Origin: Acheta domesticus
Taxonomy: Eukaryota > Arthropoda > Insecta > Orthoptera > Gryllidae
Reading direction: 5' to 3'
Length of the DNA stretch: 64,000 nt
NCBI GenBank assembly: GCA_031308135.1
Contig: JAHLJT010000631.1
Span: 159,564,921 to 159,628,920 of the forward strand
In this document: piece after piece, positions 2,921 to 46,400 of the stretch
Layout: each line of letters opens with the position of its first letter
How positions within the stretch are numbered: position 1 is the stretch's first letter
Position numbers and translations under genes: made by a program
The notes under the pieces: generated by a model
Seen by the model: the letters and a program-made list of their open reading frames with translations, nothing else
Databases searched by the model: none
Told to the model about the DNA's origin: nothing

Positions 2921-5900
2921 TCCACCTAGGGAGTACAAGACCTTGACGTTGGTGGTAGAGCTTGTGTACCCCCGTGAACCTGAGAGCTATGCCGGCGGTA
3001 GCGTAGCTACTGGTAGGGCCTCCCTTGCCGGACAGGTCGAGGGAGAGGGGGTCAGACGAAGAAGTACTCCAGAAGAGGACCTCAACGCCGGAAGAAATCA
3101 CCAATATCTGAAGTGGATCGGCAAAGATCTTTAGCGAAGATGGCGTGAGGCGCCTCGAGGGGTAGATGGAACCCATAGCCGAAGTGAAGGCAACCATCTA
3201 GGGGAGAGCCCCCGACAGAAAACAAGCAGGGCAGAATGCTTGAAGTCGGCAGCCCCGACGTCTGCCTACTTAGCTGTGGGCTGGTAACTCGCACTAAGGA
3301 ATAATAATCCACTCGCAATCTTCACTGTAAGCCGGATAGTCACATACGACGACCAACGCATGCCAAGGAAAAGAGAAAAGGAATTGCGGAATTATTAAAC
3401 ATAGCCACATGGAACGTAAGAGGTCTGGGAATGAAAGACGTAGAACTAGATAAGCTTCTAAATGAACGGAAAATACAAATAGCTGTAATAACTGAGACTA
3501 AGAAGAAACTAAAAGGAACAAAAGAATTAGATAACTATATAATGATATATAGTGGCGTGTCAGAGGGTGTAAGAGCAAAAGCTGGAGTAGCCATACTGAT
3601 TCACAAAAGACTGAAATCTAGAATAGAGAATTATACTTATCTGAATGAAAGAATAATGATGATAAGAATGAAAGTAGATAGAGGTCATCTGACGGTGATA
3701 GGGATATATGCCCCTGAAGAGGGAAGGAAGGCAGAAACAGAAATATTATACAACCAGCTACAAAAGCAAATCGATAAGGTGAACAAGAACGATAGTCTTA
3801 TAATATGCGGCGATTTTAATGCCAGAGTAGGTATTATACCTATCCCAGGAATTGTCGGAAATCAGGGCGAACAGCACTTGAATGAAAATGGTAAAGAGCT
3901 AAGAACATTTGCTTCCTCCAACAATCTAAAAATCACAAATACTTTCTTTAGAAAAAGAGATATAAACAAATACACATGGTGTGCCCGAGGATGTAGATCA
4001 ATAATTGATTACATATTAATAAATAATAAAATACGGGCACAGCTGAAGGATGTTCAAGCTTACAGAGGATGCGATCTATACACTGACCATTATCTGGTGA
4101 TAGCAAAATTCTTACTTTTTAAAAGATGGAAAACGTCCACAAGAAAGAAATTACAATCCCCTGAAGAAGTATTCATAGTGCATCTTCTGCAAGAAGGGAG
4201 CATTAGAACATTGTATCAGAAGAGACTACGACACTATTTAATGGACGTTCCCACAGAGGATGATCTCGAGAAAGAGTGAGAAAATATAAAGATTAATATA
4301 AAGAAAGCAGCCACGGAAGCACTTGGGATAAAGAAAAAGATTAGAAGCAAGAAAGGTTTAAGAATCTGGAACAGCGAAATTTCAGAAGCAATCAAAGACA
4401 AACAGGAAAAATATAAAAAATGGCTTCAACAGAACAACGAACTAACCCGAGAAAACTATAAAACAGCACGGAACAAATCAAAGTGTATAGTCAAAGAAGC
4501 TCCCCGGAAATCCTGGGATACATTCATAAGTAAAATTGTAAACGACATACATGGAAGACAAAATGCCGCATATAAGATAATGAAACATCTGAACAAGACA
4601 GAAAGAGATACAATAAGGATTGGTGTTGTGAAGAAAGAAGAGTGGATCGAACATTATAAACAACTATGGTACAATGCACAAGAAGATAATGAAATATCGG
4701 AATGTAAAGAAGGAGAAAATAACAGCATTGATCCAATCACAATACACGAGCTACAAGAATCATTAAAAGAACTAAAGAATAGAAAGGCTACTGGAAGAGA
4801 CAAAATCAATGCTGAACTTCTAAAATATGGCGATCCACTCCTGCATGGGAGATTACAACATTTAATGAATCAATGCTGGCAATCTAAACGGATACCTGAA
4901 GAATGGAAAACTGTTGAAGTTGTATCAATATTTAAGAAAGGAGATCGTAAAAACCCAGAGAACTACAGAGGAATTGGCTTGCTGAATTCAACATACACGT
5001 TATATGCCAGAATTATAAACAAAAGACTCCTAAAAATAGCAGACTTGCTAGTGGACGAAGAACAAACTGGTTTCCGAAAAGGAAGGTCAACTACTGACAA
5101 TATTTTTGTTCTACAGCAACCATGGAGAAACGAAGAGAATTCAATCTACAAACGCATATGGCATTTATTGATTTTGTTAAAGCCTTTGATAATGTTGATA
5201 GAAGGAAACTTTGGGACATTATGAAAAACTATGGCTACCCTACTCATCTTATAGAAACAATTAAAAGCATGTATAATAATTCAAAAATAATTATTAAGAC
5301 AGATTCCATTAAATCAGAAGAAATTTTAATTAACAAAGGCGTTCGACAAGGATGTTCAATGTCGCCGACACTTTTCAACATATATGTAAATGACATATTT
5401 CTGAGATGGAAACAAAATATTAAAACAGGAATAAAATTGACTAAGAAAAATATTTTAAACCTTCTACTTTATGCAGATGATGCTGTCATAATCCAAGAAA
5501 CTGAAAAGGATCTACAGTATGCCCTACACCACTTAAATCAGCTATGCAGCTCTTAACAACGTAACCATCTCAAAAGACAAAACTAAAATATTAGCGTTTT
5601 GGGGAAAAGAGATTATCCGTTCAAAAATAATTCTAGACAATGTAAGCTTAGAACACGTTTTAAATTTTAATTACCTAGGATGTGACACGGAAGAACAAAA
5701 AGACATTGATAAAAAATTAGCAAGATTTCAATCCATCTGTGGGACCATACACAGAACACTTAAAAACAAGACCCGAAAAGATACCAGAATAAAATTTTAC
5801 AAAACATTAGCTCTCCCGATATTGCTTTATGGCAGTGAATGCTGGGTTCTAACGCAGAAAAGAATAAGCAAAATTCAGAGCTCAGAGATGAAGTTCCTTC

Positions 5901-6105
5901 GAAGAACAAAAGGCTGCATCTTAGAAGACCAGATAAGAAATGAAGAAATCAGGAAAGAATTGAAGAAACAAGACTACCAAGATTAGCATATTTCTACAAA
6001 CCGAGAGGGAAAAGAGATGTGGGAAGACCCACGAAAAGATGGAAAGATACAGTGGAGACGGAACAGGCGTAAGCCTAACCCGTGAAGTGTAGAAGAAGAA
6101 GAAGA

Positions 6106-18999: not shown

Positions 19000-19257
19000 C
19001 TATTTCATTATTGATTACTCAAAATTGTAGATATTATTTAGTTTTTTATTGGGACATATTTGTCCCAATAATCCCAATATTGTCCCCATATTTGTCCCAA
19101 TTGATCTTTCTGGGTATGATGGAAAATAATGTTGAGAATAAAATGAATTTTTTTCGTCAGGTCGCGCATGACTTTTATAATTGGCGGGCGAGCGGCAAGA
19201 TAGTGCGCTCTGTCGGGGATCGGCGGCGGCAGCTACAAGCTGTTGGACAGGGCCTGG
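19000..19257 (+). mobile_element. left half of an LTR-like sequence split by the Foldback-like element
   Basis: Removing the 19267-29833 insertion and one copy of its 9-base duplication joins this GC-rich segment to 29843-30203. The joined sequence has a TTTAAA box, a GAGAGCAGCAGTCGG initiator-like region and AATAAA near the end, as in an insect LTR. Exact LTR ends were not found. A GGGACATATTTGTCCC hairpin lies near 19050. Confidence 0.35.
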
Positions 19258-19266
19258 TAGGCTTGA
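19258..19266. repeat. left 9-base target-site duplication
   Basis: TAGGCTTGA, repeated exactly at 29834-29842, immediately outside matching inverted ends. Confidence 0.88.
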
Positions 19267-20690
19267 AGCCATCTAAAGCTAGCAGCGCCCAGAAACCAAT
19301 CTCAACCAAACTATATCCAAAATTTTAGGCTAATTTTAGGCTAATTAAATGCTCTATTCCCGAATTTTAGGCTCTTCTGGATTTCCGAAATCGTGGGCGC
19401 TGCTAGCTTTAGCCTAAAGCTAGCAGCGCCCACCCAGAATCCATCTCAAAATCAATTGTAAAATCCGAAACCCATCCCAAAATTTAAGAATAATTTTAGG
19501 CTCTTGGAAAAAAATCATCCCCACCTTCAAATTCCAAAAAATTAGGGCTATACAAAGCGAAACAATTAACATTGATTCTTACGGGTGAAATAACACCAAA
19601 ATCAAAAACCTTAGGAAAAATCTGAAACCCCTCCCAAAAGTTAAGAATAATTTTAGGCTCTTGGAAAAAAATTATCCCCGCCTTCAAATTCCAAAAATCA
19701 GGGCTGTACAAAGCGAAACAATTAACATTGGTTCTTATCTGCGAATAAACATCAAAATCAAAAAACCTTAGGAAAAATCTGAAACCCCTCCCAAAAGTTA
19801 AGAATAATTTTAGGCTCTTGGAAAAAAATCATCCCCGCCTTCAAATTCCAAAAATCAGGGCTGTACAAACAAAACAATTAACATTGGTTCTTACGGGTGA
19901 AATAACACCAAAATCAAAAGACCTTAGGAAAAATCTGAAACCCCTCCCAAAAGTTAAGAATAAGTTTAGGTTCTTAGAAAAAAATCATCCACGCCTTCAA
20001 ATTCCAAAAATCAGGGCTGTACAAAGCGAAACAATTAACATTGGTTCTTATCTGCGAATAAACATCAAAATCAAAAAACCTTAGGAAAAATCTGAAACCC
20101 CTCCAAAAGTTAAGAATAATTTTAGGCTCTTGGAAAAAAATCATCCCCGCCTTCAAATTCCAAAAATCAGGGCTGTACAAAACAAAACAATTAACATTGG
20201 TTCTTACGGTGAAATAACACCAAAATCAAAAGACCTTAGGAAAAATCTGAAACCCCTCCCAAAAGTTAAGAATAAGTTTAGGTTCTTAGAAAAAAATCAT
20301 CCACGCCTTCAAATTCCAAAAATCAGGGCTGTACAAAGCGAAACAATTAACATTGGTTCTTATCTGCGAATAAACATCAAAATCAAAAAACCTTAGGAAA
20401 AATCTGAAACCCCTCCCAAAAGTTAAGAATAATTTTAGGCTCTTGGAAAAAAATCATCCCCGCCTTCAAATTCCAAAAATCAGGGCTGTACAAAACGAAA
20501 AAATTAACATTGGTTCTTACGGGTGAAATAACACCAAATTCAAAAAACCTTAGGAAAAATCTGAAACCCCTCCCAAAAGTTAAGAATAATTTTAGACTCT
20601 AGGAAAATAATTATCCCGCCTTCAAATTCCAAAATTTAGGGCTGTACAAAGCGAAACAATTAACATTGGTTCTTTCGGGCGAATAAACAC
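19267..20690 (+). repeat. left arm of the Foldback-like element: 157-base tandem array
   Basis: The motif AAGAATAATTTTAGGCTC recurs with starts at about 19486, 19643, 19800, 19956, 20112, 20269, 20425 and 20582 (spacing 156-157). Units alternate between two versions, GGGTGAAATAACACC and CTGCGAATAAACATC, giving a higher-order period of about 313 bases. The outer 19397-19437 segment is a palindrome of the tip motif. Confidence 0.93.
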
Positions 20691-21288
20691 CACTCACTAT
20701 GAAAGAACTCACTATGAAGAAAAAAATATCTTTGAAGGAAAAACCTCCATCTGTAATTTTGTAGTTGGAGGAAGACGTTGAATAAAATTCAAAATTTTGC
20801 AATTTTCGAAAATTTAGCGTTTACTGTGAACATCGTATCTATGTCACCATAATAAGTGCATTTTACTCTGTTCTTACAAGAAATTTAAAGAAAAATTTGG
20901 AGCAGTTTTTGAGAAAAGTTTAAAACGTCCGGGAGCTTCATGTAAAGTACCCCAAATTTTATAGTATCTTTTTCCAAATCTCAAAGCTTTCACTCAAACC
21001 AGATCGTGCGGGGAATATCCATTTTGGAAGAAATCGTACGTATGGTTTAGGTGCTAGCAGTGTTGACGGACGGACGGGGACGGACAGATGGACGTTTTCC
21101 TTTCAGTTGGTTTTTGGGAATCAAGGACCAACAAAAACGGGTTTCTGGCTACACCACGTGTTAAGGGATTTTTTTTCTTAATTTAGCAACTGGATTTATC
21201 CACTTTTCGTCATCAGGACCAGACAACTAATTTTTTGCTGGCGAAAATTCGCCATTTTCCCCGCAGCATCATATAACTTTCCCTATAC
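20691..21288 (-). repeat. repeat family X, 5' part, inverted
   Basis: On the minus strand this matches the beginning of the copies at 46366 and 57721: a GGAAAGTTATATGATGCTGC-type start, GGATAAATCCAGTTGC, CGTCCGTC-type runs and CTAGCACCTAAACC. It is nested inside the Foldback-like element next to the inner edge of the left arm. Confidence 0.75.
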
Positions 21289-22600
21289 TATGTATATTAC
21301 TCTGTATTTAAATAGCATTTATTGTCGACAGAACAATTTTATACATGGTGGTAGTTTTGCACTACATAGCATGTATATATTGGATGGTTGGAGAGTTCAA
21401 GATTGCTTTGACCTTTCTTGCGTTATTTATAATAGTCTGAAGATTTTCTTCTCTTGTGTAACTGACGCACCTCTTTTGTTTTATTTACACTATCATTACT
21501 TCAACAACCTACATCTAATTACAATTACTTCATAAGCGACTCTGTCGCGTCCTTATTGCTTTTATCTTCGAAATTCTCTTATCTGAAAGACCTGACACTA
21601 AGCACAGGTGTCACTGTCACGTCTTGTTGTGCACTGATTACTATTTACACTATTTACATTTTAACTGCTCCATCACTGCACCATCTTCTTTGACAAGGTG
21701 TAGGGGCATCAAGGGGCTCCGGGTGGTGGCGCGGGAGTTTTTAGGTGCGAATTGGCCTCCGCCAGATGATGCCCGCGGCCGAGGCGGCCCCCGCCGGACA
21801 CAGTTTTATTTATTTACACACACGGCGGTATTCGGCAGGGACCAGGTCTGGACGGTGTGCTTGTAATAGCAGGCGCCACTACGTCGGTAAAGCTAGCACC
21901 CCCACTTTCTCAAACTCAAAAATGCTTGCGCCATAATTTTGGGCTAATTTCAGCCCCCTTCCAAAAATGTTGGGCTACCTCCCAACACCTTGAAATTACG
22001 ATTTCAAATTTGGCCGGTAAAGCTAGCACCCCCACTTACTTAAAATTCAAATGTTTTTGCACGGTCAAAACAAGTGAATTTTGGGCTTCTGGGGGCCACT
22101 TTTCAAAATTTCGAAACACACCCCTAAATACTAAAAACAAAAAATCAAAACTACCCTAATTCTCAAATTTCAAAATTTCTCCCACCATAAGTTTGGGATA
22201 TTTTGGGCTCTTCAGTGACACCAGAAACATTATTTTGGTACCCTACAATCTCCGAATTAAGGTTAAAAATTGTGGGTTGTTAATTTAACACCCACCCGTA
22301 CTGAAATTCGAAAATATTTGTGTGGTCGTAAACGTGCGAAATTTTTGTTCCTTTTCAAAATTTCGAAACTCACCCCTACGTACGATAACAAATATTTAAA
22401 ACCATCCCAATAGCAACTCAAATCAAAAAATCTTGGGCCATAATTTTGGGTTCTTTAGTGTCATCAAAAAACACCCCGAAATCAACTTAGCAAAAAGGAG
22501 GACGGAGAAGCTAGAATCTCACTATCTCAAAACTAGGAAATCCGGAGAAACTTCACTCATATTCTGGGAGAATTATACCGTACACGTGTATTTCCAACAT
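21289..22600. other. interior of the Foldback-like element, unassigned
   Basis: AT-rich to 21680, then a GC-rich patch to about 21900. From about 21885 there are two copies of TAAAGCTAGCACCCCCACTT (21885 and 22018). These resemble the tip motif TAAAGCTAGCAGCGCCCA and may be old terminal sequences. No transposase motif seen. Confidence 0.4.
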
Positions 22601-22899
22601 TAAAAAAAGAAAAAAATGTATTTGTTGAGAGTTTTACCAATTATTCGGACAGGATCAATATCAAGCCTTGAAATAATTACTTTAATTCATTTCTATGTAA
22701 ATATCCAATATGAACTTATTAAATATTTCATACAAGAAAAATTCTCTCCAAAAAGCAGCGACGAATTAAAAGATAAAATAGTTATTTAACTATACATCTA
22801 CAATTCTAAAATCACAATCAACAATAGAGAAATCCAAAAATGGGAAAAGAATAATGCCTAGTATAAAAGGCAAACTACATTTTTTCTCAATCTTTCATT

Positions 22900-25243
22900 C
22901 GTCAAAAAAAAAAAAGAAAACAAACTTAACTAACAAATGTAAATATGGAATTTACTAACAATTGAACACATACCAACAAATAAGATGCGATCTTGAAATA
23001 ATTTGGGCATTGTCATGTTTTTCATGAAAAAGAAAAGCAAAGTAAAAAAACTGTCCGAAATACTTACCGATCTCAATATTTGTTGGGTTTTTTCAAAACT
23101 AAACTACAGGTATTTCGCTTCAAGCAATCCAATGTTCTACAAATAACATGCACATTATGGCAAAAAAATCGCGACACGCATATCATTTTGGGGTAGATGC
23201 ATTCTTTTTGAAAAGAATTGAATATTAATCAAAACACCCTATTTTCCCTGCAAAATTCAATATTTGTGTTGTTATAAAACCTAAACTACAAGGATTTCGT
23301 TACGGGCAATTTAATGTCATATACAACACATAATAGGTATACGGCTGTACTCTCTAATAATTTTGGACTACTCACTTTGTTTTAAAAAGATTGGAAAATT
23401 AGTGTGAAAACTATTATATAAATTTTTATCATATTTTGGTTTATCACCAAATAAACTCCAAAATACTGTACTAATTCAAAAGAGGAATTTATTTAGAATT
23501 GCTCGTACATTGGCCATCAATAGGTCAACATCAAATAATTTTGGACTAGATTCGTTCTTATTGAAAATGAAAGGAATATTAATCAAAACAGTCCAAACTT
23601 TTTTCCGATATTCAATATTTACGTTACCTTAACTACAGGTATTTCGCGTTTGATAATGTCATTTTCAAATACATGATAAGGAATACGGCTGTACTCAGAA
23701 AAAATTTTAGGCTCCTCTCTTTGTTTAGCAAAAAATGGAAAATTCTCGTGAAAACTACAATACTTCTTGACCAATTTCTCATTCCTCACAAAATAAACTC
23801 CAAAATACTTTACTAATTCAAAAAGAGAATTTATTTACATTTGCACATACATTGCTTCTCAATTTGCTAATCTCAAATAATTTCGGGGTAGAGACGTTCT
23901 TATTGAAAAATAAAGAATAATAATCAATAGAATAACTTTTGTTTTTGCTATCCAATATTTGCGATCTTATAAAACCTGAACTACAAGGATTTCGTTTCTG
24001 GCAATAAAGTGCCATATACAACACGTGATAGAGAATACGGCTATACTCATGAATCATTTTGAACTTCGCGGTTTCTTCTCCAAGAAAAGAAAAATTCGCG
24101 TGAGAACTACAATATACATTTCACCACGTTTCCACTTCTGAAAAAGTAAACCCCAAAATTCTGTACCAATTCAAATAAAGAATTTATTAACAATTGCACA
24201 TAAATTATCTAATAATATTCAAATCTCAAATAATTTTGGGCTATATTAGTTCGTATTAAAAAAGGGATATTAGTCAAAACCAGTTCATATTTTTTTTCGA
24301 TATTCGACACTTCCGTTCTTATAAAACCAGAAGTACTAGGACATGGCTCATGGCATTGGCGTGTGACACACAATACATATTAAGGAATACGATTATACCC
24401 ACAAATAATTTTGGGCTTCTCTTTCTTTTTCAAAAAAGTGGAAAATTCTCGTGAGAAATACAGTATAACTTTTAACTAATTTTTCATTCCTCACAAAATT
24501 ATTTCTGAAATACTTTAATAATTCAAATGAGGAACTGATTCACAATTGCTCATGCATTACCTATCAAGATGCCAATCTCAAATAATTTTGGGCTAGCACC
24601 GTTCTTATTGGAAAAAATTGGAATATTCATCAAAACACACCCAATTTTGTTCGATATTCAACATTTGCATTCATATAACACCTGAATTACAACGATTTGG
24701 CTCCTGGGAATTGAAGACCATATACAACACATGATACGGAATACAGATATACTAACAAATGATTTGGGCTTCTCTCTTTCTTTTCCAAAAAAATGGAAAA
24801 ATTCTCGTGAGAACTAGAATATACCTTTTTACTAATTTTTCATTCCTCACAAAAAATTGCAGAAATACTTTACTAATTTAAATGAGAAATTTATTAACGA
24901 TTGCTCATACATTACCTATTAATATCACAATTTCAAATAATTTTGGGCTAGAGCCGTTCTTATTGGAAAAAATTAATATTACTAAAAAATTTCCCAATTC
25001 TTTTCCAACATTTAATATTTCCGTTGTTACAAAACCTGAACTACAAGGATTTGGCTCCTTGGAAAGGCGCGTGACATACAACACATAATAAGAAATATGG
25101 TTATACCCACAAATAATTTTGGGCTTCTCTCTTTCATTTCCAAAAAAATGGAATCTTCTCGTGAGAACTACAACATACCTTTCGATTAACTTTCATTTCT
25201 CACAAAATAATCTCTGAACTACTTTACTAATTCAAATGAGAAA
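22900..25243. repeat. internal satellite, period about 350 bases
   Basis: The marker CAAATAATTTTGGGCTAG recurs at 23179 (diverged), 23532, 23874, 24227, 24579 and 24934, with spacings of 342-355. Units share blocks such as TCAAAACAC, ACCTGAACTACAAGGATTT, ATACAACACAT and TTCTCGTGAGAACTACA. The array resumes at 28431, after the nested element. Confidence 0.9.
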
Positions 25244-28200
25244 GGGTCCCCCCCGATAAGATGGTAAAAAGTTCCCCTCAACCAAATTACATATGAGTGG
25301 TTACACTATAATTCTAACATAAAATAATATTTTTGAAAGGTTTCTTAGCCTCCGTCCTACCACCCACACCCCTATACAGCCAAAAACGTGTTTTTTTAAT
25401 TTCAATTTTTTTCGACAACTGAACACTATTTATCAGACTGAAAAAAAATATGATAAATAAGAACACAACTTGGACTATAAGAAAAATATTTTACAATATT
25501 TTCTCAGGCCCAAATTCGAACACAAAAAAATATTTTCGAAAAAAAATATCAAGAAATATTTTTACTGTGTCTTAGAAGCCTGGAACAGGCTCGAAAAAAA
25601 TGTCAAAGGTTCCTCTTTACACACAAATTGTTGTGTATTTTTTTCAGATTTTTCCGATTACTGGGCTGCAGTTAAAAAAATAAAAACCATTTTCCCGCCT
25701 TTAAAACACCTGGACTTTCAATATACTTTGAAAATGACTGCAACGGTTCTCTGCATTTATTTTAGTGTTTATTATACATTTGTATACATTGCTGTATCAC
25801 CCAATAAAGTTTTGATTTTGGAATGTACTTACGAAGTATCATTTTTAAAGCTTTCTAAATCGTTTGTATAAGTAATCGTATGCTACGGAAAGACGATAGT
25901 TTTGGNNNNNNNNNNNNNNNNNNNNNNNNNNNNNNNNNNNNNNNNNNNNNNNNNNNNNNNNNNNNNNNNNNNNNNNNNNNNNNNNNNNNNNNNNNNNNNN
26001 NNNNNNNNNNNNNNNNNNNNNNNNNNNNNNNNNNNNNNNNNNNNNNNNNNNNNNNNNNNNNNNNNNNNNNNNNNNNNNNNNNNNNNNNNNNNNNNNNNNN
26101 NNNNNNNNNNNNNNNNNNNNNNNNNNNNNNNNNNNNNNNNNNNNNNNNNNNNNNNNNNNNNNNNNNNNNNNNNNNNNNNNNNNNNNNNNNNNNNNNNNNN
26201 NNNNNNNNNNNNNNNNNNNNNNNNNNNNNNNNNNNNNNNNNNNNNNNNNNNNNNNNNNNNNNNNNNNNNNNNNNNNNNNNNNNNNNNNNNNNNNNNNNNN
26301 NNNNNNNNNNNNNNNNNNNNNNNNNNNNNNNNNNNNNNNNNNNNNNNNNNNNNNNNNNNNNNNNNNNNNNNNNNNNNNNNNNNNNNNNNNNNNNNNNNNN
26401 NNNNNNNNNNNNNNNNNNNNNNNNNNNNNNNNNNNNNNNNNNNNNNNNNNNNNNNNNNNNNNNNNNNNNNNNNNNNNNNNNNNNNNNNNNNNNNNNNNNN
26501 NNNNNNNNNNNNNNNNNNNNNNNNNNNNNNNNNNNNNNNNNNNNNNNNNNNNNNNNNNNNNNNNNNNNNNNNNNNNNNNNNNNNNNNNNNNNNNNNNNNN
26601 NNNNNNNNNNNNNNNNNNNNNNNNNNNNNNNNNNNNNNNNNNNNNNNNNNNNNNNNNNNNNNNNNNNNNNNNNNNNNNNNNNNNNNNNNNNNNNNNNNNN
26701 NNNNNNNNNNNNNNNNNNNNNNNNNNNNNNNNNNNNNNNNNNNNNNNNNNNNNNNNNNNNNNNNNNNNNNNNNNNNNNNNNNNNNNNNNNNNNNNNNNNN
26801 NNNNNNNNNNNNNNNNNNNNNNNNNNNNNNNNNNNNNNNNNNNNNNNNNNNNNNNNNNNNNNNNNNNNNNNNNNNNNNNNNNNNNNNNNNNNNNNNNNNN
26901 NNNNNGGAAGCCTGTGGTCTCACGTCTGTAGATTGTTTCAGACTAGAGAAAAAGTTGTCTTTTCCTTTACCTAAGTATTTGTTCTTGAATACGTATAAAT
27001 ATGGAGAGACTTGTACAATGTACACGTGCGAAAACTGCACTTTGTAAATAATAATTGTACGAAAATTGAAAATTGATTTAATGTAGCATCCAACTGCAAA
27101 CGCTCATCCCCCGAAAAGCAGTTTACGGCATTATAGACCCGGTACTGTGCGAGAGAATTCATTCCAATATTGCTGAGCGTTGAGATAAAAATTCCCCGAA
27201 AATAAAATAGTCCCGTTAATTTTATCGTGAAAGATAATTCTGTATTTTCCTTCAATTTAATTTTACATTGATATCGGCTTCTCTTTTCTGTCCATCTGTG
27301 CTACGGAAAAGGCGCACCCAAAAGAACTAATATGGAAAATTGTAAAATGGGATGATCATAAGAGTGGTATTTTGAAAAATACATCCCAACAACATAATCG
27401 GGCCTAATATGTTCCCCTTCACTTCCCCACTGTCCCCTATCTATCCTGCACACGAAATGTCCCTTATCATTTCCCCATTTGTCATCTACCCGTCCCCCAA
27501 AACATGTGTGTTAGAATTTACTTGTTCTAAAAAAAAAGGCGTGTCCCCATGAGACAAGCAAACGTGGTTTAAAAGGCCTAGGAAGCATCGCTTCCGAGTT
27601 ATTTACCATTATAATACGTGTTGCAATAATCTTTTTTTTGTATGTCATAATTTGCAAACTTCTATTTTTTCTTCTAAAATCTGTTTGATGTAGGATGGGG
27701 TGTCATTCTTTATCCACCAGTATCACACTTACAAGGTCTTGTGTCGATTGTTTCTTATAAATTGCCAAAACTATCGTCTTTCCGTAGCATACGATTACTT
27801 ATGCAAACGATTAGAAAGCTTTAAAAATGATACTTCGTAAGTACATTCCAAAATCAAAACTTTATTGGGTGATACAGCAATGTATACAAATGTATAATAA
27901 ACACTAAAATAAATGCAGAGAACCGTTGCAGTCATTTTCAAAGTATATTGAAAGTCCAGGTGTTTTAAAGGCGGGAAAATGGTTTTTATTTTTTTAACTG
28001 CAGCCCAGTAATCGGAAAAAATCTGAAAAAAATACACAACAATTTGTGTGTAAAGAGGAACCTTTGACATTTTTTTCGAGCCTGTTCCAGGCTTCTAAGA
28101 CACAGTAAAAAATATTTCTTGATATTTTTTTTCGAAAAATATTTTTTTGTGTTCGAATTTGGGCCTGAGAAAATATTGTAAAATATTTTTCTTATAGTCC

Positions 28201-28430
28201 AAGTTGTGTTCTTATTTATCATATTTTTTTCAGTCTGATAAAATAGTGTTCAGTTGTCGAAAAAAATTGAAATTAAAATAACACGTTTTTGGCTGTATAG
28301 GGGAGTGGGTGGTAGGACGGAGGCTAAGAAACCTTTCAAAAATATTATTTTTATGTTAGAATTATAGTGTAACCACTCATATGTAATTTGGTTGAGGGGA
28401 ACTTTTTACCATCTTATCGGGGGGGGACCC
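25244..28430. mobile_element. nested element with 0.66-kb terminal inverted repeats
   Basis: Left arm 25244-25905 and right arm 27765-28430 are near-identical reverse complements; the tips are GGGTCCCCCCCCGATAAG and its complement. The unique centre of at least 0.86 kb (26906-27764), plus the N gap, shows no transposase. Removing 3187 bases restores the satellite spacing (24934 to 28474 becomes 353) and the unit sequence AATGAGAAATTTATTAAC, so no target duplication is evident. Superfamily unknown. Confidence 0.8.
25906..26905. other. assembly gap (1000 N)
   Basis: Exactly 1000 N, so probably a placeholder length. It starts exactly where the left inverted repeat stops matching known sequence. 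Confidence 0.99.
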
Positions 28431-28726
28431 TTTATTAACACTTGCCCATACATTACCTATTGATATGCCAACCTCAAATAATTTTGGGCTAGCACCGTTC
28501 TAATTGAAAAAAAAATACAATATTAATCGAAACACACCCACTTTTTTTCGATATTCAATATTTGAGTTCTTATAACACCTGAACTACAACGACTTAACTT
28601 CTGAAAATTGAACTTCATATTCCACACATTATAGGGAATACTATTATACCCACAAATAATTTTGGCTTTCTCCCTTCCCTTTCCAAAAAATGGAAAATTC
28701 CCGTTAGGAATACAACATACCCTATT
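28431..28726. repeat. internal satellite, last unit
   Basis: Continues the roughly 350-base satellite in the same orientation as 22900-25243, up to the inner edge of the right arm. Confidence 0.88.
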
Positions 28727-29833
28727 CACCAGTAAGAACCAATGTTAAATGTTTCCCTTTGTACAGCCCTGATTTTTGGAATTTGATGGCTGGGATGATT
28801 TTTTGCCAAGAACCTAAAATTATTCTTAACCTTTGGGAGGGCTTTCGAATTTTTCATAAGGTTTTTTGATTTTGGTGTTATTTCACCCGTAAGAACCAAT
28901 GTTAATTGTTTCCCTTTGTACAGCCCTGATTTTTGGAATTTGAAGGCTGGGATGATTTTTTGCCAAGAGCCTAAAATTATTCTTAACATTTGGGAGGGCT
29001 TTCGAATTTTTCATAAGGTTTTTTGATTTTGGTGTTATTTCACCCGTAAGAACCAATGTTAATTGTTTCGCTTTGTACAGCCCTGATTTTTGGAATTTGA
29101 AGGCGGGGATGGATTTTTTCCAAGAGCCTAAAATTATTCTTAACTTTTGGGAGGGGTTTCAGATTTTTCCTAAGGTTTTTTGATTCTGGTGTTATTTCAC
29201 CCGTAAGAACCAATGTTAATTGTTTCGCTTTGTACAGCCCTGATTTTTTGGAATTTGAAGGCGGGGATGATTTTTTTCCAAGAGCCTAAAATTATTCTTA
29301 ACTTTTGGGAGGGTTTCAGATTTTTCCTAAGGTTTTTTGATTTTGATGTTTATTCGCCCATAAGACCCAATGTTAATTGTTTCGCTTTGTACAGCCTTGA
29401 TTTTTGAAATTTGAAGGCGGGGATAATTTTTTTCCAAGAGCCTAAAATTATTCTTAACTTTTGGGAGGGGTTTCAGATTTTTCCTAAGGTTTTTTTGATT
29501 TTGGTGTTATTTCACCCGTAAGAATCAATGTTAATTGTTTCGCTTTGTATAGCCCTGATTTTTGGAATTTGAAGGCGGGGATAATTTTTTTCCAAGAGCC
29601 TAAAATTATTCTTAAATTTTGGGATGTGTTTCGGATTTTACAATTGATTTTGAGATAGATTCTGGGTGGGCGCTGCTAGCTTTAGACTAAAGCTAGCAGC
29701 GCCCACGATTTTCGGAAATCCAGAAGAGCCTAAAATTCGGGAATAGAGCATTTAATTAGCCTAAAATTAGCCTAAAATTTTGGATATAGTTTGGTTGAGA
29801 TTGGTTTTTGGGCGCTGCTAGCTTTAGATGGCT
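28727..29833 (-). repeat. right arm of the Foldback-like element: 157-base tandem array
   Basis: Reverse-complement counterpart of 19267-20690. The marker TATTCTTA occurs at about 28831, 28978, 29135, 29293, 29449 and 29607. The two innermost units (28727-29040) differ from the others in shared ways (for example TTGCCAAGA for TTTCCAAGA and TTCATAAGG for TTCCTAAGG), suggesting local duplication. Confidence 0.92.
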
Positions 29834-29842
29834 TAGGCTTGA

Positions 29843-30203
29843 GCCGTTAGGGCGAGTCTCACCGCCTAGCATCGGCCCTTTAAATGGAGTCAGCCAGCCA
29901 GTCCCGAGTCGAGTCCAGAGAGCAGCAGTCGGGAGTTGACCGTCGGGGGGGCGACGGTCACAGTCAGCAGTCAACGGGGGACGTCCTGAAGCAGGACGTG
30001 TGGAGATGTTGGGGACTGGAGATTGCGTATAACTGGCAATGTGGCGGCTAGTGGTAGTTACCACCCGTCTGTTAGATGCCGTAGGAAGACGGCACAGCTC
30101 AGGGAGAGGCTACTCCCTAAACCTGTAATAACTCGCAACTATGTAAATAAGGAATCAATAAATAGTTAAGTTAGCGTGCGACTTTCATTTATGGACATTA
30201 CAC
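29843..30203 (+). mobile_element. right half of the LTR-like sequence
   Basis: GC-rich with CCCTTTAAATGG, then GTCAGCCAGCC and a GAGAGCAGCAGTCGG start-like region, and GGAATCAATAAATAG about 45 bases before GGACATTACA. These resemble the promoter, R region and poly(A) site of an insect LTR. It is the continuation of 19000-19257. Confidence 0.4.
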
Positions 30204-38383: not shown

Positions 38384-39958
38384 TCAAATAGTACTTTCAC
38401 GAACAGTCTTCTGAACTTTAGAGAGAGATTCTAGAGCTTCAATTAGTAGTTCATGTGTCTTAGATTGCTTACTTTCTATTTCCTCGAACTTGATCTGAAA
38501 CTTGTTGAGACGACGTTTCACTTGTTCAACATCGGACACTTGCTTCTTTTCGGTGACAATATCCGTTGCCTTCACCATGATGTCTCGTTCCATTCTAAAT
38601 GCTTTGAAACGAGCTGTGGTGGCAGCATCAAGTAGAAATTTTATCTCCCCTGAGTTAGGAAATGCATGTATTTGTTTCTTCGGTAAATTTGTTCTAAAAA
38701 GTCTTATACGAGGTTCCAGTACTTCCCTATACAACCCCTTGTACATACATTGAGTAGCTACTGCTATCTTAATAAGCATCAATTCAAGATATGCTACAAG
38801 TTTCACCATTGAAACCAAACCCAGAACAACTGCATCTTCTTTAATGGCTTGTGTGTCATATACTGCAAGACCATTGAGGAGATTTAATAGAATTATAGCG
38901 ATTAGAAATACAAATATTATAAAAACGACATGGCTGGTACCTGGAACTGAATCAAACACTAGCTCAGAAGCTTCAAATTCTCCAACCATCATTATAATAG
39001 TTTTTATCACTGATAATCCGGGGTCTAGGAAAAAAGCTTCTTTACTTTCAGGATCGTACTCCTTACTGCGACGAAATAAAGTATAAAAACTTAATGCAAA
39101 TGCAACTACTAACAGCGAGTACCAAGCCATAAAACGTAAGAAAGTAAACGACACCTTTTTTAGCATCTCTAGTTGAACTGACAGAAAAGGCAAACGTCCC
39201 GTCATAAATACAAGTTCCGTCCATGTCAATAAAATGGCCATGGCAGAAATATGCTGTTTAAAATTGCTAGCATCCCAGTCGCTGCTCAATGCAATAGCAC
39301 AAACTATTATCATTAAGAATTCAATTATGTTCTCCCAGTCTTTGGCATATCGTTTCCAGCCAGTTGCACACTGTACTATTTCCCGAAGGACTAAAGCAAT
39401 GAGAAGATATATACAAGGAATGCGCAGTATATGGGCAGCAAATTCTTCTGCACTCAAATGCTTTGGATCATCATGCTGATGCACACACCTTTTTTTACTT
39501 CCAAACACGGCTTTGACAAGAGAACCAACTTGAAATTTATCGACTTCAGAGAGACTAAGTTGTCGCACATAATTTTGTGTGCAGTTTTCATCAAATTCTT
39601 TACATTCTAAATTCAAAACCAAAGAACTCTTTTCCGGATCAACTACGTCCATTATCTTGGCACTTGACATATTTCTGGTGATATTAATCATAGTACAATT
39701 TGTAATATCTTCATCATCAACATTTATGAGGAGAATATAAGCTGTAATTAGCGTTACAAATAGTATATATACGATTAGATTAATATAAAAGAACCACCGC
39801 ACCATATACCACTTGAGATTGAGGAAGCTGTTAATGACAGGATGACGAAGCAATGGCCGAAGATCTTTAGAACGGCTGATGTAGTGCAAGGCATCCATTT
39901 CAGAGCGACCTGTTGCTTTCTCCGAAGAAGGTTCCAAGAACGTGTAACGAATAATAAC
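38384..39958 (-). CDS. pain: gene 2, terminal exon: six-helix TRP pore domain and C-terminus
   Basis: A single exon of 524 residues plus stop TGA at 38384-38386; the acceptor is TTGATTGTAG. In exon numbering: pre-S1 segment 1-50, S1 about 53-78, extracellular S1-S2 loop about 79-168, S2 about 169-187, S3 about 200-218, S4 about 225-247, S5 about 275-295, pore loop about 308-333 with GEFE, S6 about 344-365 (LLNLLNGLAVYDTQ), then a cytosolic tail with a Lys/Glu-rich coiled coil near the end. The S1-S2 loop has four N-glycosylation sequons (NCT, NIT, NMS, NCT) and four cysteines, and is longer than in the fly protein as I remember it. Base composition is ordinary, unlike the GC-rich ankyrin exons upstream. 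Candidate poly(A) signals lie 90-150 bases downstream. Confidence 0.95.
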   Translation of the reverse strand, partial: VIIRYTFLEPSSEKATGRSEMDALHYISRSKDLRPLLRHPVINSFLNLKWYMVRWFFYINLIVYILFVTLITAYILLINVDDEDITNCTMINITRNMSSAKIMDVVDPEKSSLVLNLECKEFDENCTQNYVRQLSLSEVDKFQVGSLVKAVFGSKKRCVHQHDDPKHLSAEEFAAHILRIPCIYLLIALVLREIVQCATGWKRYAKDWENIIEFLMIIVCAIALSSDWDASNFKQHISAMAILLTWTELVFMTGRLPFLSVQLEMLKKVSFTFLRFMAWYSLLVVAFALSFYTLFRRSKEYDPESKEAFFLDPGLSVIKTIIMMVGEFEASELVFDSVPGTSHVVFIIFVFLIAIILLNLLNGLAVYDTQAIKEDAVVLGLVSMVKLVAYLELMLIKIAVATQCMYKGLYREVLEPRIRLFRTNLPKKQIHAFPNSGEIKFLLDAATTARFKAFRMERDIMVKATDIVTEKKQVSDVEQVKRRLNKFQIKFEEIESKQSKTHELLIEALESLSKVQKTVRESTI

Positions 39959-40438: not shown

Positions 40439-43400
40439 CAGCCTCATGTACATATACAATTTCTGAATAAACAGTTTCTGAACTTAGAACCGGGGATCAT
40501 CCACCGACGGACTATGGTCTGTACAGGAAATAAAAGGTATATGATCGTTTGCATTCTCAATTCTCTTTTCGTTTCTATTTTGGTTTCAAGTACAGGGTCG
40601 AAATAATTACAGAACATTTACGATTAGGCTTTGTGAACCATTAACTTTCAAGAAAATGTCAATAATATTGAAGACAAAATCAATTACAGGAAAGTCACCC
40701 TGTTAACCAAACCGATTAAGACCTGTTCTATAATTCATTGTGATGGATTCTTTAAAGATCCGCAAGAGTATCAAGAATAGAAAGATTCAAAAATAGTATT
40801 GATTTAAAAAATAAATCAATTTTTGATTACGTAAACTACAATTAGAATGGCTTGGTCATGTAAACAGTATGGAATTAAATAGTACAACGAAACAATTATT
40901 TTATTGGACTCAATTGCGAAGAAGAAAAAGTAAGATCCAAAAATACATGAATTGAAGAAATGTATAAATTGCTGAAAATCAAAAGTTTGAAAGAACAGGA
41001 CTGTTATGATAGGGAGAAAAGGAAAAAAAGTATTAAAATCTTTATTCACATAAAATTGTAATGTTGAAACACAAAAGTGATTCATTTAATTATATATTTG
41101 TTAAATAAATAAATGAACCAAAACGATAAAACATCTACAAAGTAAAAAAAACGCATAGAACTCAGCAATATTTTTGACAAAAGATGAAACTCAAACGGGG
41201 AGTACGTTACAACAACAACTTGACAGAGTGAAAGATATGGGATACAGAATTCTGGAGCCATCAGAAAAATTCTTGCAAAATTACATTCTAACCTGAGTAA
41301 CGAAAATGAAAGCATGAATTTGAGTGATTTTCATTAATTATTAAAAATTAAATGGTATTGTATTTAAGGCTTTAATTAACTAAAGCTGACACGAACGCAA
41401 ACAGCATTCTTGTCTTCCGTTATTCCCCTGGTATTAATGGGAGAAACCACGGAAAACTACCGATGAGAGCAGCCGGCCGCCAGAATTCTCCTCCAGACAG
41501 CCACAGAACTCGACCTAGCTATCTAGCTAGTGTCGAAAATCCTGCCACCGTCGAGACACGAACCTAGGACCTCCCGCACTGCATTGACATTAGTTGATGT
41601 CCTGAGACACCCCTCCCGGTACGAATGATTGTCACGACGTATATTACCGCCACGACGCCCGCCGTGAATGTAACGAGCTGGCATATTTTGAGAAAGCAAA
41701 GAGAGACCTGGTAGTCCTGACTGAGCGGCGAGAGGCCGTTGCTCTTGATCTGCTCGTCGAGGAACTGGTCGATGGTCTTGGCGTCGATGAAGGCGAGCGG
41801 CGGGTCGCCGTCCTGGTTCTTCTTCATGATGTTGGCGCCCCTGCGCAGCAGCGCCAGCACCACCTGCTGGTTGCCGTAGTGCGCGGCGTCGTGCAGCGCC
41901 GTGTCGCCGAACTCGTCCTGCGCGTCGATGTCGATGCGCGGCCGCAGCGCCGCGTCCACGGCGTCGTACCAGTTGGCGCGCGACAGCGTCTCCGCCGCCG
42001 CCTCGTCGTGCTCCAGCAGCAGCGAGATGCAGCGCTGGATGTCCTCCTGCTCCTCCTGCGCACGCGCGGCGCCCCCACGTCACAGCGGGCCAGCGTTTCT
42101 TACAGCAGCTTTTCGACAAACTACTAGTGCTTCCACAGGGCATACTGTCTCGCATGGTTTTTAACTTGTGGAGTTTTCGGTTCTTTAGAGAGTTTAACGG
42201 AAATAAGGCTTATTTTAAGCCTCCTAAAAATATAAAAAATAAATTACAGTAATTTTTTGAGAAAAAATTGCATTAATATCAACCAAAAATTACTTGATTA
42301 AAAATGTAAATGACCGTATTTAGAGCTCTATTTTTTTAGGACGGTTCTATTTTTTAAATCTCTATCATCAGTATAGTACTTTTGTTTAAAGAAAAAATAA
42401 TTCAGGCCGTTATTTAGAAGTTTTTTTAAATTTCCTTTATTTCACGCACAATTACGCGAAAATTACTCAAATGGTTGAAAAATTGCCTGTAACCTTATTT
42501 TAAGATCTATCTTTGAACAACAGATTTCATTCAGGAAAAAATCTCTATCTTTCATTGTGTAGTTGTAGGAAGACGCTGATATATTTATTAACATTTGCAA
42601 TTTTTAAAAAATCAGGGATTTGCACGAATATGAGACCTCTGCCATTTTTAGGCCTTCTCTTCGCTATCCGAGCACTTCACATGCGTTCTCTACGCTTGGA
42701 AGTTACGTGGCTCGTAGTGCAAGAGGTCAAGACGTGACAAACATGTTAAAACTTCCTAATAATTAACAATCTTCTACGAGCGCCGGGTTACAGACTATTC
42801 TGTAGGACCGTTGCGGTGCGCATAGTGCGGCTTCATGAGTTGAGGGAATTGGGTAGGTCGCGCTGCACGTAGTTCTTCACCGCGCCGCCTGGGTCGCCTC
42901 TAAGAATTGACCGATTTTGACGATTCTCCTCCGGAATCCAGCTTTTTTTCGATTTCTATAGATTCTATATTCAATTCCTTGTTTTAGCTGTAATCTATTG
43001 CAGAAGGCTGGAATTGAATTAAATTTATGTTTTTCATGTATATTGTAGTCTGATGACATACTATGGGAATTCATAGTATTTTCAAAGTTTGTAATCTTAC
43101 ATTGTGTTTCAATGTAAGGAGTAAATTTAAATGGTGTTTCTAAAAAATTAATCTTCAAGTAGATCTGGACTTCATTTAGATGCCAATGCAAATCTTTGTA
43201 TTGTGGTTGTATTATTGCGACACTTTGTTCTTAAAGGTTTCACAATTTCTTGTCAATGAAAATAATTTGAAGTCAGAAATACTTAGGTTCTGATCATCTT
43301 TGCACTTTTCTGTAATTTATCATAACTATCTTAACCTTAGTGTATAGAAAAAGTATGCGTTATTTTAAATGGTCGTTTTCGGAAACGACTCTTTTGGATA

Positions 43401-46400
43401 GATTTTATTGTTTCGTGAATATAGATTTCCTTTGTGTATCCATACCTTTCTCGCGCCTCAATTCCAGTGTTCGTGTTTTCTCAGTTGGGAACTTTTTTAA
43501 AATGAAAGTACGCACCGCTGTTTAACAAAAGGATACTCATTTGAATACGATTTCTTTAGGGATCGTCTTTTTTGGTATGATTCGATTCTACAATCGATTC
43601 AGATATTTCAATTACGGTATCAATTCCTGAAACGATTTTTATCTAGGAATCAACAATACGTTACGACAATACGTTTGAAAAGCGGAACTTGACGCTGGCC
43701 GTCATGTTGCGTGGAGATCGGGAAGTACTGAGAAACATTGGCAAGTGGAAAAAAGTGATAATTTTCAAAGAAAACTAACATGATGAAGGAGTAATTGAAT
43801 TTAAAACGTGCTTCATTTATTCTTTTCAATGTCTTTAACCAAGCGATAATTTTGCATGTGGCTGCATTTAAAATCCCCAGTAATATTGTCATGGATGTTT
43901 TTAGTCACCTGCGAGGCGCACTGCTTCTGCGCCGCCACGTGCAGCGCCGTGTGCTTGGAGCGGTCTGTGACGTCGAGGCGCGCGCGGCCCTGATGGATGA
44001 GCACGGCCAGCGCCTGGTGGTTGGCGTTCTCCGTCGCCTGGTGCACCACAGGGATGCCGTAGATGCGGTTGCTGGTGTTGGGGTCCGCGCCGGCCTCGAT
44101 CAGCGCCGCCACGAATTTCTCGGCGTGGTGCTGCCGGCACGCCAGCTCCAGGCACGTGCAGTAATAAGGGTCGTCGTACCTGTGTGCAGGATGACCAGAC
44201 ACTAAAACACAGCAGTGTGTATGAAGCATCCATTTGTGTATTTTCTTTGAATGGTCTTTTGACATTCCATTGAATGTAAATAAATAGAAAATGTGTTTGT
44301 TTATAAGAAATCATACATTTATTACAATTATAATGTTAGATGTGTGGTGTCCTCCCTACGGGAAAGCGTGGTTGTCTGACCTCATCTCTAGGTCATTTGA
44401 TAATTAGTTTTCAACAATCCATTTTTTCCGTTTAAGAGCAGGAACTTATGGGTGCATGATCAATCAAACCAGAGTGAAAATGAACAAATGTGTCAATTGT
44501 ACAATAATTACTTCTAAATGATGACTGTCATTAAATAACGAGGTATCAAATACTTTATATCTTATTCAAATGAGTCAAAAACTCAAGTGAAGAACTGTGC
44601 AATTACGTTTAAGAGTGTAATCAGTAGAGACCGGGTTTTCATGTAATTACATATTTTGTCTTTCTCCTTACCGATCTCAAATTTGTAATCTTGGCGAATA
44701 GTCACCGTACTAACACATACTAGCACACGCTTGGAATATATGTTTGTTGATATGATGATTGGCACAAAACATTTATTTGTCGGGGTTGTATATTGACCTA
44801 CAAATACGGGAATGTTGTTACAATTAGAGGAATCACTTTCAGAACTCACATATAAGTATCAGATATTATTATAATGGGGGATTTTAATTGTGACTTAAGA
44901 AATCCCATCAAAAAATCTGCCACTAATTTTATTCATACTTTCAATTCATATAATCTGCAAATATTGAAATTGAATCCTACTCATAGCTCATCTAAAACGG
45001 CATCGTGGATTGATTACTTGATTGTCTCAAATATTTCTAAAATATTCCTCTATGGTCAGTTTCCTGTTCTCGGGTATTTCAAACCATGACTTACTCTTGT
45101 TGTGTACTCTGCTAAGTGCACTAAATACAAAAATAAAACAATCCATTATCGTGATTCCAAAAATCTGGCTCTTGCAGCATTTCAAGTCGACAGTGAGCTT
45201 GCAGCTTGGAACGAGGTTTACCAACAATATTCATTAGACTCTAAAGTAAATGTGTTTAATGGTGTCATAACGAACATTTTTAACAAGCACGCTCCATGGA
45301 AAACTTCTCGTGTCACGCCGCCTGCTGCTCCATGGCTTACAAACGAATTAAAAGTTCTTATGAAAGATAGAAATTCTGCACGCAGTCATTTTAGAGCCAC
45401 TAAAACCGATGAAAATGAAAAAGAGTACCAAAAACTTAGGAATTATGTAAAACAACAAGTCGGAAGCGCTAAGATTCGTTATTATCATAATCTTTTCCCA
45501 AAAAAATCCAGTACAAAGGAAGTATGGAACACGTTGAAAAACTTTGGAATTTTCAAACGTAAGTCAAAAATGACAGTTCATTAGAAATTTCATTAGATGA
45601 CCTAAATGATTATTTTGCTTCCGTTGCGCATCCAATAGACCCTATTATTAAAGAAAAGTCACTACGCTTTCTGGAATCACCAGCGCCACCCCGGGACGAT
45701 AGCTTCTATTTCAACAATGTTGATTGCCAAGAAGTCGAAAAAATAGTGAAGGCACTCATATCAAATTCAAAAGGCTCTGACGATATAACGGCCAAGCAGT
45801 TACAATTGGTTTTAAAAGACGCTCTTCCAGCACTTACACACATAATAAACTTTTCTTTAACAACCGGATACTTTCCCCAATTGTGTAAACTAGCATACAT
45901 ACGTCCTCCTCCCCAAATATTTAAATTCGTTAAATCCTTGTGATTACCGACCTATCAGTATATTACCAACATTATCCAAAGTCCTAGAAAAAATTGTACG
46001 TCAACAAATAGACAAGTATCTCGCCATAAATGTTGTTCACAATAATTTGCAATCTGATTTTAGAAAAGGTAGAAGTACGCAGACGGCTTTGTTACGAGTC
46101 ACCGAAGACATTCGTCAGTCTCTGGATGAAGGCAATATAACAACGTTAACGCTTTTAGATTTTAGCAAGGCCTTCGATTCAATAGACCATGACGTGCTTC
46201 TGGCCAAATGTAAATGCCTCGGGTTTTCTCATTCTACCTTATCGTGGATTTCAAGTTATTTTAGTAATAAACAACAGGCTATAGCTGTTGAGAAAACTTT
46301 GCAGGCTGTAGTTGTTGATATTTTCACAAACTATTTTTATTCTATGGATTTTCTTTCATTTTATTACTTTCCCGTATACGTACGTATACACGGACGTATA

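What the first reader, a model, noticed from the sequence alone, without database searches (positions are those of the whole stretch)
19258..29842. 10.6-kb Foldback/Mutator-like element with 9-base duplication
Exact TAGGCTTGA on both sides of perfectly placed inverted tips proves a single transposition of a very large element whose ends are tandem arrays. The architecture is that of Drosophila Foldback, but the sequence, period (157) and internal satellite are unlike the roughly 31-base repeats described there. It may be an undescribed family.
Basis: partly seen in the sequence, partly recalled or inferred. Interest (0 to 1): 0.75.

Follow-up and report, generated by a model that had tools for sequence, protein, structure and literature searches.

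The report
Cricket foldback transposon with nested transposon
This is one insertion of an apparently non-coding foldback-type jumping element in a cricket genome, with long repeat-filled ends and a second, unrelated jumping element later inserted inside it; it looks like a new family of a known kind of mobile DNA.

Summary
TAGGCTTGA flanks 19267-29833, whose ends are long inverted repeats (94% over 1,114 bp) built of a tip and 157-bp tandem units. Three corrections. (1) It is not a 10.6-kb element: 25244-28430 is a later insertion with 662/665-bp inverted ends and an assembly gap of exactly 1,000 N. It splits one unit of an internal 354-bp array between AAA and TTT without duplication; five sibling units show the empty site. 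That is the signature of Spy (PHIS) transposons. The host element without it is 7,380 bp, including 1.2 kb of foreign-looking filler. (2) The duplication is 9 bp with tip AGCC or, equally exactly, 7 bp (AGGCTTG) with tip AAGCC, so 'Mutator-like' is unproved. (3) No Pfam domain was found in 23 internal ORFs; the mover acts in trans or lies in the gap. The host is a cricket near Gryllus bimaculatus. Closest in plan is Tetris of Drosophila virilis. The new feature is a box, ATTTTRGGCT: 26 of 26 copies in the window lie inside the element, in tip, 157-bp units, middle and 354-bp array, none in the two intruding segments. These are candidate transposase-binding sites. Other genomic copies could not be sought: the genome search did not complete.

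The parts
19258..19266 (+). Left target-site duplication TAGGCTTGA (or 7-bp AGGCTTG, 19259-19265)
29834..29842 (+). Right target-site duplication TAGGCTTGA (or 7-bp AGGCTTG, 29835-29841)
19267..20692 (+). Left arm: 147-bp tip region, then 7.9 units of 157 bp; segments L4-L5 duplicated as a dimer (L6-L7; numbering, where L1 is the tip segment)
28722..29833 (-). Right arm: tip region and 5.8 units of 157 bp, inverted
19273..19291 (+). 19-bp tip motif CTAAAGCTAGCAGCGCCCA, outermost left copy
19394..19432 (.). Palindrome: the same 19-bp motif inverted (19394-19412) and direct (19414-19432), 1 base apart
   Evidence: hairpin z = -6.06 for 19267-19445 as single-stranded DNA
29667..29705 (.). Palindrome of the 19-bp motif in the right arm
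29809..29827 (-). 19-bp tip motif, outermost right copy
20693..21884 (.). Filler of foreign look; 20701-21345 is a dispersed repeat with relatives in five regions of the right flank (about 34, 42, 46, 58, 60 kb); no box
21887..22530 (+). Middle region with two tip-like motifs (21887, 22017: GTAAAGCTAGCACCCCCAC) and ATTTTGGGCT boxes; the one at 21887 aligns with the tip over about 67 bp with the same 49-bp tip-to-box spacing, the one at 22017 only over the motif itself
23179..25243 (+). 354-bp satellite array (units 20-32% different); two box positions about 176 bp apart per unit, several of them degenerate
28431..28721 (+). Rest of the 354-bp array, continuing the unit cut at 25243
25244..28430 (.). 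Nested Spy-type element: inverted ends GGGTCCCCCCC..., 662 and 665 bp; inserted between AAA and TTT without duplication
25906..26905 (.). Assembly gap, exactly 1,000 N, inside the nested element

Best explanation
A single copy of a non-autonomous, foldback-type DNA transposon in a cricket genome, moved by cut-and-paste in trans. Shown: terminal duplication, long inverted arms made of a tip region and 157-bp tandem units, no Pfam domain in the ORFs scanned, and a middle made of a tip-like module and a 354-bp satellite. Shown: a Spy-type transposon later entered one satellite unit between AAA and TTT without duplication. Inferred: the mover is most likely a Mutator-like (MULE, Phantom/Foldback branch) transposase, since 9-bp duplications and repeat-filled long ends go together in animals (about 0.6 within this reading). 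Inferred: the box ATTTTRGGCT, at +56, +67 and +98 from the end and then about once per 157-bp unit, is a transposase-binding site repeated many times, as THAP sites are in Galileo ends. The arrays would raise the chance of holding the transposase on the DNA and of pairing the two ends, and would grow and shrink by unequal exchange (the left arm has a duplicated dimer).
For: Duplication and arms. Arms share segments in register: L1/R1 (tip segment) 2.5%, L2/R2 3.8%, L3/R3 3.8%, L4/R4 3.2% different; L4/L6 1.3% and L5/L7 0.6%. No coding domain: 23 ORFs from inside the interval scanned with Pfam, none above a curated cut-off (5 of the 10 proteins, 10 of 10, 8 of 8; these cover 9 of 9 ORFs of 45 aa or more in the nested element's inner part, 9 of 9 of 60 aa or more in the core and 3 of 3 of 75 aa or more in the satellite as listed, plus one each in a nested arm and in the right array). 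Nested element: of 5 sibling 354-bp units, 5 align across the junction without gap; 1 reads AAATTT there, 3 GAATTT, 1 GAACTG. Box: 26 of 26 exact copies inside, 0 outside; with one mismatch 37 inside and 6 outside, none in the nested element or the filler. Presence of the box in unlike modules after allowing for choice of word: 11-mers reached by 4 of 1,000 shuffles and 3 of 1,000 draws of real flank, 10-mers by 6 of 600 and 12-mers by 0 of 600, 12-mers by 3 of 14,823. Known parallels, from passages.
Against: No transposase and no second copy were seen. The duplication length is ambiguous (9 or 7). In-register pairing of the arms is not exclusive: L8/R4 is as close (3.2%) as L4/R4. The box's constraint in the diverged 354-bp units is mixed: windows overlapping the first box rank third and fourth of 340, but its own window has 10 better and the second box's has 56 better, and the best-conserved stretch of all (TTTACTAATTCAAA) holds no box. 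Draws of real flanking DNA reach the 11-mer sharing in 3 of 1,000. Binding is untested, and copies within an array are not independent.
Confidence: 0.82

Rival explanations
1. The mover is a P-superfamily transposase of the Galileo kind: the true duplication is the 7-bp AGGCTTG with tip AAGCC, and the boxes are THAP-domain sites.
For: The 7-bp reading is exact and the extra tip base A pairs at both ends. [quoted passage not shown] here boxes start at +56, +67 and +98. One paper calls Drosophila FB itself P-element related (PMC7642927, passage), while another groups some Foldback elements with Mutator (PMC3169594, passage).
Against: AGGCTTG differs from the Galileo duplication consensus GTAGTAC. 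The 9-bp reading is the longer exact match. Likeness of TTTGGGCT to THAP sites is only recalled. No transposase is seen.
Confidence: 0.2
2. Another superfamily with 8-9-bp duplications (such as Merlin or the KDZ group, recalled) moved it.
For: Duplication length alone does not name a superfamily; no coding domain was found.
Against: In the papers seen, arms filled with tandem repeats belong to MULE/Phantom, FB and Galileo elements.
Confidence: 0.15
3. The boxes mark common descent only: the repeats grew by duplication from one end module, with no present binding role.
For: The middle module at 21887 aligns with the tip over about 67 bp; tip and 157-bp unit share AATTTTAGGCTCTT.
Against: Outside the box the 157-bp unit is not convincingly like the 354-bp half-units (22 and 50 of 300 shuffles score as well) nor the two middle pieces (158 and 28 of 300), although all keep the box.
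Confidence: 0.4
4. Assembly artefact or chance inverted satellite, not a transposon.
For: There is a 1,000-N gap in the middle, and repeats invite misjoins.
Against: Exact duplication beside arms that match to the last base; the 354-bp unit continues in phase across the gap-bearing insertion; exact boxes stop at the element's ends.
Confidence: 0.03

Closest known systems
Tetris (Drosophila virilis foldback; PMC4079207, passages and one section read)
   Same: Outer domain then tandem units (about 220 bp) in the arms; variable middle with no apparent coding capacity; 8-9-bp duplications in three complete copies; no transposase found; a 37-bp stretch shared by outer domain and unit, as the box is here.
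   Different: Unit length and host. No nucleotide comparison was made: the Tetris sequence was not at hand.
Foldback (FB) of Drosophila melanogaster (PMC7642927, passages read)
   Same: Inverted arms with tandem repeats of unequal number; 9-bp duplication; variable middle.
   Different: FB arms carry blocks of five 27-31-bp repeats; the 157-bp unit shows no 31-bp period. No nucleotide comparison was made.
Galileo (P superfamily; PMC3688188 passages and one section, PMC2775673 and PMC3573991 passages)
   Same: Foldback-like arms, tandem repeats in some subfamilies, several transposase-binding sites in the arm, the first about 70 bp from the end.
   Different: 7-bp duplications with consensus GTAGTAC; different tandem unit (about 210 bp in the D. 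mojavensis F group).
MULE/Phantom elements: Tm1 of root-knot nematodes (PMC3169594) and Muta elements of Aedes (PMC5225508), passages read
   Same: 8-10-bp, in Tm1 mostly 9-bp, duplications; arms with tandem repeats; many non-autonomous copies.
   Different: Repeat units of 9-15 bp, arms of 145-151 bp in Muta1 and Muta5; a transposase is known there.
Spy transposons (PMC4482050, PMC11304231, passages read), for the nested element
   Same: Insertion at AAATTT without duplication; inverted ends can be long (467 bp in cgSpy).
   Different: Transposase not seen here; the gap may hide it. Tip sequences were not compared.

Membership tests
Foldback-type element (architectural class) | Long inverted arms made largely of tandem repeats, with a variable middle | tested here: met
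   variability of the middle between copies could not be seen (one copy)
Foldback-type element (architectural class) | Duplication of target DNA at insertion | tested here: met
   exact 9 bp (or 7 bp)
Drosophila FB family | 27-31-bp repeats in blocks of five | tested here: not met
   lag-31 self-match of one 157-bp unit 0.325 against a mean of 0.289 (sd 0.040) over lags 5-78; description from PMC7642927
Mutator-like (MULE/Phantom) | 8-10-bp duplication | tested here: inconclusive
   9 bp fits, 7 bp fits as well
Mutator-like (MULE/Phantom) | MULE transposase (PF10551), FLYWCH domain in Phantom | tested here: not met
   none in this copy (23 internal ORFs); an autonomous copy elsewhere could not be sought
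Galileo / P superfamily | 7-bp duplication, consensus GTAGTAC | tested here: inconclusive
   7 bp possible, but AGGCTTG is unlike the consensus
Galileo / P superfamily | P-type transposase with THAP domain | tested here: not met
   none in this copy (23 internal ORFs)
Spy (nested element 25244-28430) | Insertion between AAA and TTT without duplication | tested here: met
   flanks ...GAGAAA|...|TTTATT... against five sibling units
Spy (nested element 25244-28430) | Terminal inverted repeats | tested here: met
   662/665 bp, 3 substitutions in 659 aligned bases, 9 gap columns
Spy (nested element 25244-28430) | DDE transposase of the PHIS group | tested here: inconclusive
   no Pfam family above cut-off in 9 of 9 ORFs of 45 aa or more from the sequenced inner part; 1,000-N gap inside

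The most novel reading that the evidence does not exclude
A new transposon family whose unit of recognition is the box ATTTTRGGCT, and whose two different satellites (157-bp in the arms, 354-bp in the middle) are both arrays of spaced recognition sites that grew from its own end module. The transposon would be a nursery of satellite DNA in which array growth is driven by transposase binding.
Probability: 0.3. Interest if true: 0.55.

Novelty: new member of a known kind. Interest (0 to 1): 0.36.

Why it matters
It adds a cricket foldback element, probably a new family, with readable anatomy: arms that share repeat segments in register, a candidate binding box confined to the element's own DNA, and a nested Spy-type insertion whose missing target duplication is shown by sibling repeats in the same array. 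If the boxes are binding sites, it would link transposition to the birth of satellite DNA in a testable way. As it stands it is one more member of a known architectural class, with the transposase unknown.

Tried and rejected
Other copies: the exact tip pattern (18 bases) and a 157-bp-unit pattern (23 bases) in viral contigs gave 0 matches each; the 194-base tip region in phages gave none. A 17-base tip word in genome contigs gave 9 bacterial hits, taken as chance at that word length (my reckoning); the loci were not examined. The tip motif with up to 5 mismatches has no copy in the window outside the element. The element against the rest of the window found the dispersed filler repeat and one weak 67-bp match between the nested element and the left flank.

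Coding content: 23 internal ORFs gave no Pfam match above cut-off; three hits with E 0.17-0.22 were dismissed. Shorter frames were not scanned. Rfam at its gathering scores found nothing in the window.

A 31-bp sub-period in the 157-bp unit, which would have linked it to FB, was tested and not found. Homology of the 157-bp unit with the 354-bp half-units and the middle outside the box was tested and is weak. A captured host gene in the GC-rich stretch 21690-21880 was considered by eye; ORFs there gave no Pfam match.

Literature: 9 of 10 searches used. I saw no cricket foldback family in those listings. That is no proof of absence in print: most subscription papers are not held; in the Orthoptera-TElib paper (PMC10941475, passages) the words foldback and MULE do not occur in the main text, and I did not look at its library or supplements.

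Full report
What was checked. The window holds TAGGCTTGA exactly twice on the + strand, at 19258 and 29834, and not on the other strand. Between the copies lies 19267-29833 (10,567 positions), whose ends are inverted repeats matching at 94.3% over 1,114 aligned bases. The outer 147 bp of the two arms differ by 2 substitutions and 1 indel. Tandem Repeats Finder reports 7.9 units of 157 bp on the left (also readable as a 313-bp dimer) and 5.8 on the right.

Boundary. Sliding the boundary shows two exact readings with matching tips: AGCCATCT with 9-bp TAGGCTTGA, or AAGCCATC with 7-bp AGGCTTG. This matters because 9 bp points to MULE/FB and 7 bp to Galileo. One copy cannot decide.

Length. 25906-26905 is exactly 1,000 N, so the stated length is nominal. 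The gap lies inside a second element, 25244-28430, with inverted ends of 662 and 665 bp (3 substitutions in 659 aligned bases, 9 gap columns) that begin GGGTCCCCCCC. It interrupts a 354-bp satellite unit between AAA and TTT. Five of five sibling units examined align straight across the junction without any gap; one reads AAATTT there, three GAATTT and one GAACTG. So nothing was duplicated. Insertion at AAATTT without duplication distinguishes Spy transposons (PMC4482050 and PMC11304231, passages); the latter also reports 467-bp inverted ends. The first element without this insertion is 7,380 bp.

Anatomy of the arms. Each arm starts with a 19-bp motif CTAAAGCTAGCAGCGCCCA, 6 bp from the end; about 120 bp inward the motif recurs inverted and then direct, 1 base apart, giving a palindrome (single-strand DNA hairpin z = -6.06 for the left arm). 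Then come the 157-bp units. Segments correspond by position across the arms: L1/R1 (the tip segment) 2.5%, L2/R2 3.8%, L3/R3 3.8%, L4/R4 3.2% different, against 4.4-10.8% for the six off-register pairs among 2-4; but L8/R4 is also 3.2%. L6-L7 copy L4-L5 at 1.3% and 0.6%. The simplest reading (inference) is that the arms were paired as wholes and the left array grew afterwards.

Anatomy of the middle. 20693-21884 (1,192 bp) looks foreign: 20701-21345 belongs to a dispersed repeat with relatives in five regions of the right flank, 66-83% identical in the longer matches. At 21887 and 22017 stand two tip-like motifs (GTAAAGCTAGCACCCCCAC); the first aligns with the element's own tip over about 67 bp and has the same 49-bp distance to the next box, the second aligns over the motif only. 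From 23179 runs the 354-bp array, units 20-32% different from each other, resumed after the nested element at 28431.

The box. ATTTTRGGCT occurs 26 times in the window, all 26 inside the element, against a mean of 0.175 and a maximum of 2 in 200 first-order resamplings of the element. With one mismatch there are 37 inside and 6 outside, and none in the nested element or the filler. Copies in an array are not independent, so I asked how often any word of the tip recurs (one mismatch allowed) in five other modules: for 11-mers the real value of 4 was reached by 4 of 1,000 shuffles and by 3 of 1,000 draws of real flanking DNA; for 10-mers the value 5 was reached by 6 of 600; for 12-mers the value 4 was reached by 0 of 600 and 3 of 14,823. 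Outside the box the 157-bp unit is not convincingly like the 354-bp half-units (22 and 50 of 300 shuffles score as well) or the two middle pieces (158 and 28 of 300). In the diverged 354-bp units, windows overlapping the first box rank third and fourth of 340 while its own window has 10 better; the second box's window has 56 better; the best-conserved stretch holds no box. The evidence is fair for a functional box, not conclusive.

Host and coding content. The minus-strand ORF at 38387-39958 is 503/524 identical to the painless TRP channel of Gryllus bimaculatus, so the window is from a cricket near that species; 21 differences without gaps suggest a relative rather than the same species (inference). 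None of 23 ORFs scanned from inside the interval matches a Pfam family above its cut-off.

Mechanism. Shown: one insertion event, no recognised coding domain, foldback arms, later nested insertion without duplication. Inferred: mobilisation in trans by a MULE-type transposase (about 0.6), or a P-type one (about 0.2). Inferred: the box is a repeated recognition site. The model is Galileo, where THAP-binding sites were found about 70 bp from the end and at 561-577 and 701-718 bp within the arm (PMC3688188, passages). Here boxes start at +56, +67 and +98 from the end, then at +227 and from there about every 157 bp, some units having a degenerate copy.

Comparison. Tetris of D. virilis is the closest in plan: outer domain, about 220-bp units, variable middle without coding capacity, 8-9-bp duplications, no known transposase, and a 37-bp stretch shared by outer domain and unit (PMC4079207). 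FB has blocks of five 27-31-bp repeats (PMC7642927), which the 157-bp unit does not resemble. Tm1 and the Muta elements show the same plan with 9-15-bp units and MULE transposases. No nucleotide comparison with any of these was possible. I file it as a new member of a known kind; whether the family is already in a repeat library was not tested.

Limits. The genome search was requested 12 times and never answered, so copy number, target preference, an autonomous partner and an empty allele remain untested.

Noticed in passing
25244-28430: Nested Spy-type element with 662/665-bp inverted ends, inserted between AAA and TTT in a satellite unit; sibling units in the same array serve as empty sites. 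The 1,000-N gap sits just where its left inverted end runs out.
   Followed up: yes
38387-39958 (-), with ankyrin ORFs at 41564-42076 and 43816-44310 (-): Painless-type TRP channel gene, 96% identical to Gryllus bimaculatus over 524 aa; further painless-like proteins of that species are listed, one of them on a contig of the same length as the best hit.
   Followed up: partly
20701-21345; about 57.7-58.4, 46.4-47.0, 34.0-34.5, 60.2-60.7 and 42.5-42.6 kb: A dispersed, diverged repeat family; the copy inside the element starts about 60 bp later than two flank copies that match each other further upstream, so it is cut at its 5' side by the end of the 157-bp array.
   Followed up: partly
3308-5986 (+): Non-LTR retrotransposon, split over several frames; Pfam endonuclease and reverse-transcriptase matches in the two ORFs scanned (3308-4276, 4280-5221).
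   Followed up: no
45090-46424 (+): ORFs that look by eye like a second, different non-LTR retrotransposon; not searched.
   Followed up: no
19145-19266 and 29843-30142: The element sits in a GC-rich patch of about 400 bp (52-64% G+C in a 36% window), possibly an exon or promoter. The target reads GGCTTGAGCC, an inverted repeat resembling the element's first bases AGCC, and the duplication contains TAGGCT, which is also in the box; one copy only, so perhaps chance.
   Followed up: partly
19394-19432 and 29667-29705: Palindromes with 19-bp arms made of the tip motif, about 120 bp inside each end, so that each arm holds the tip motif three times; origin and role unexplained.
   Followed up: partly
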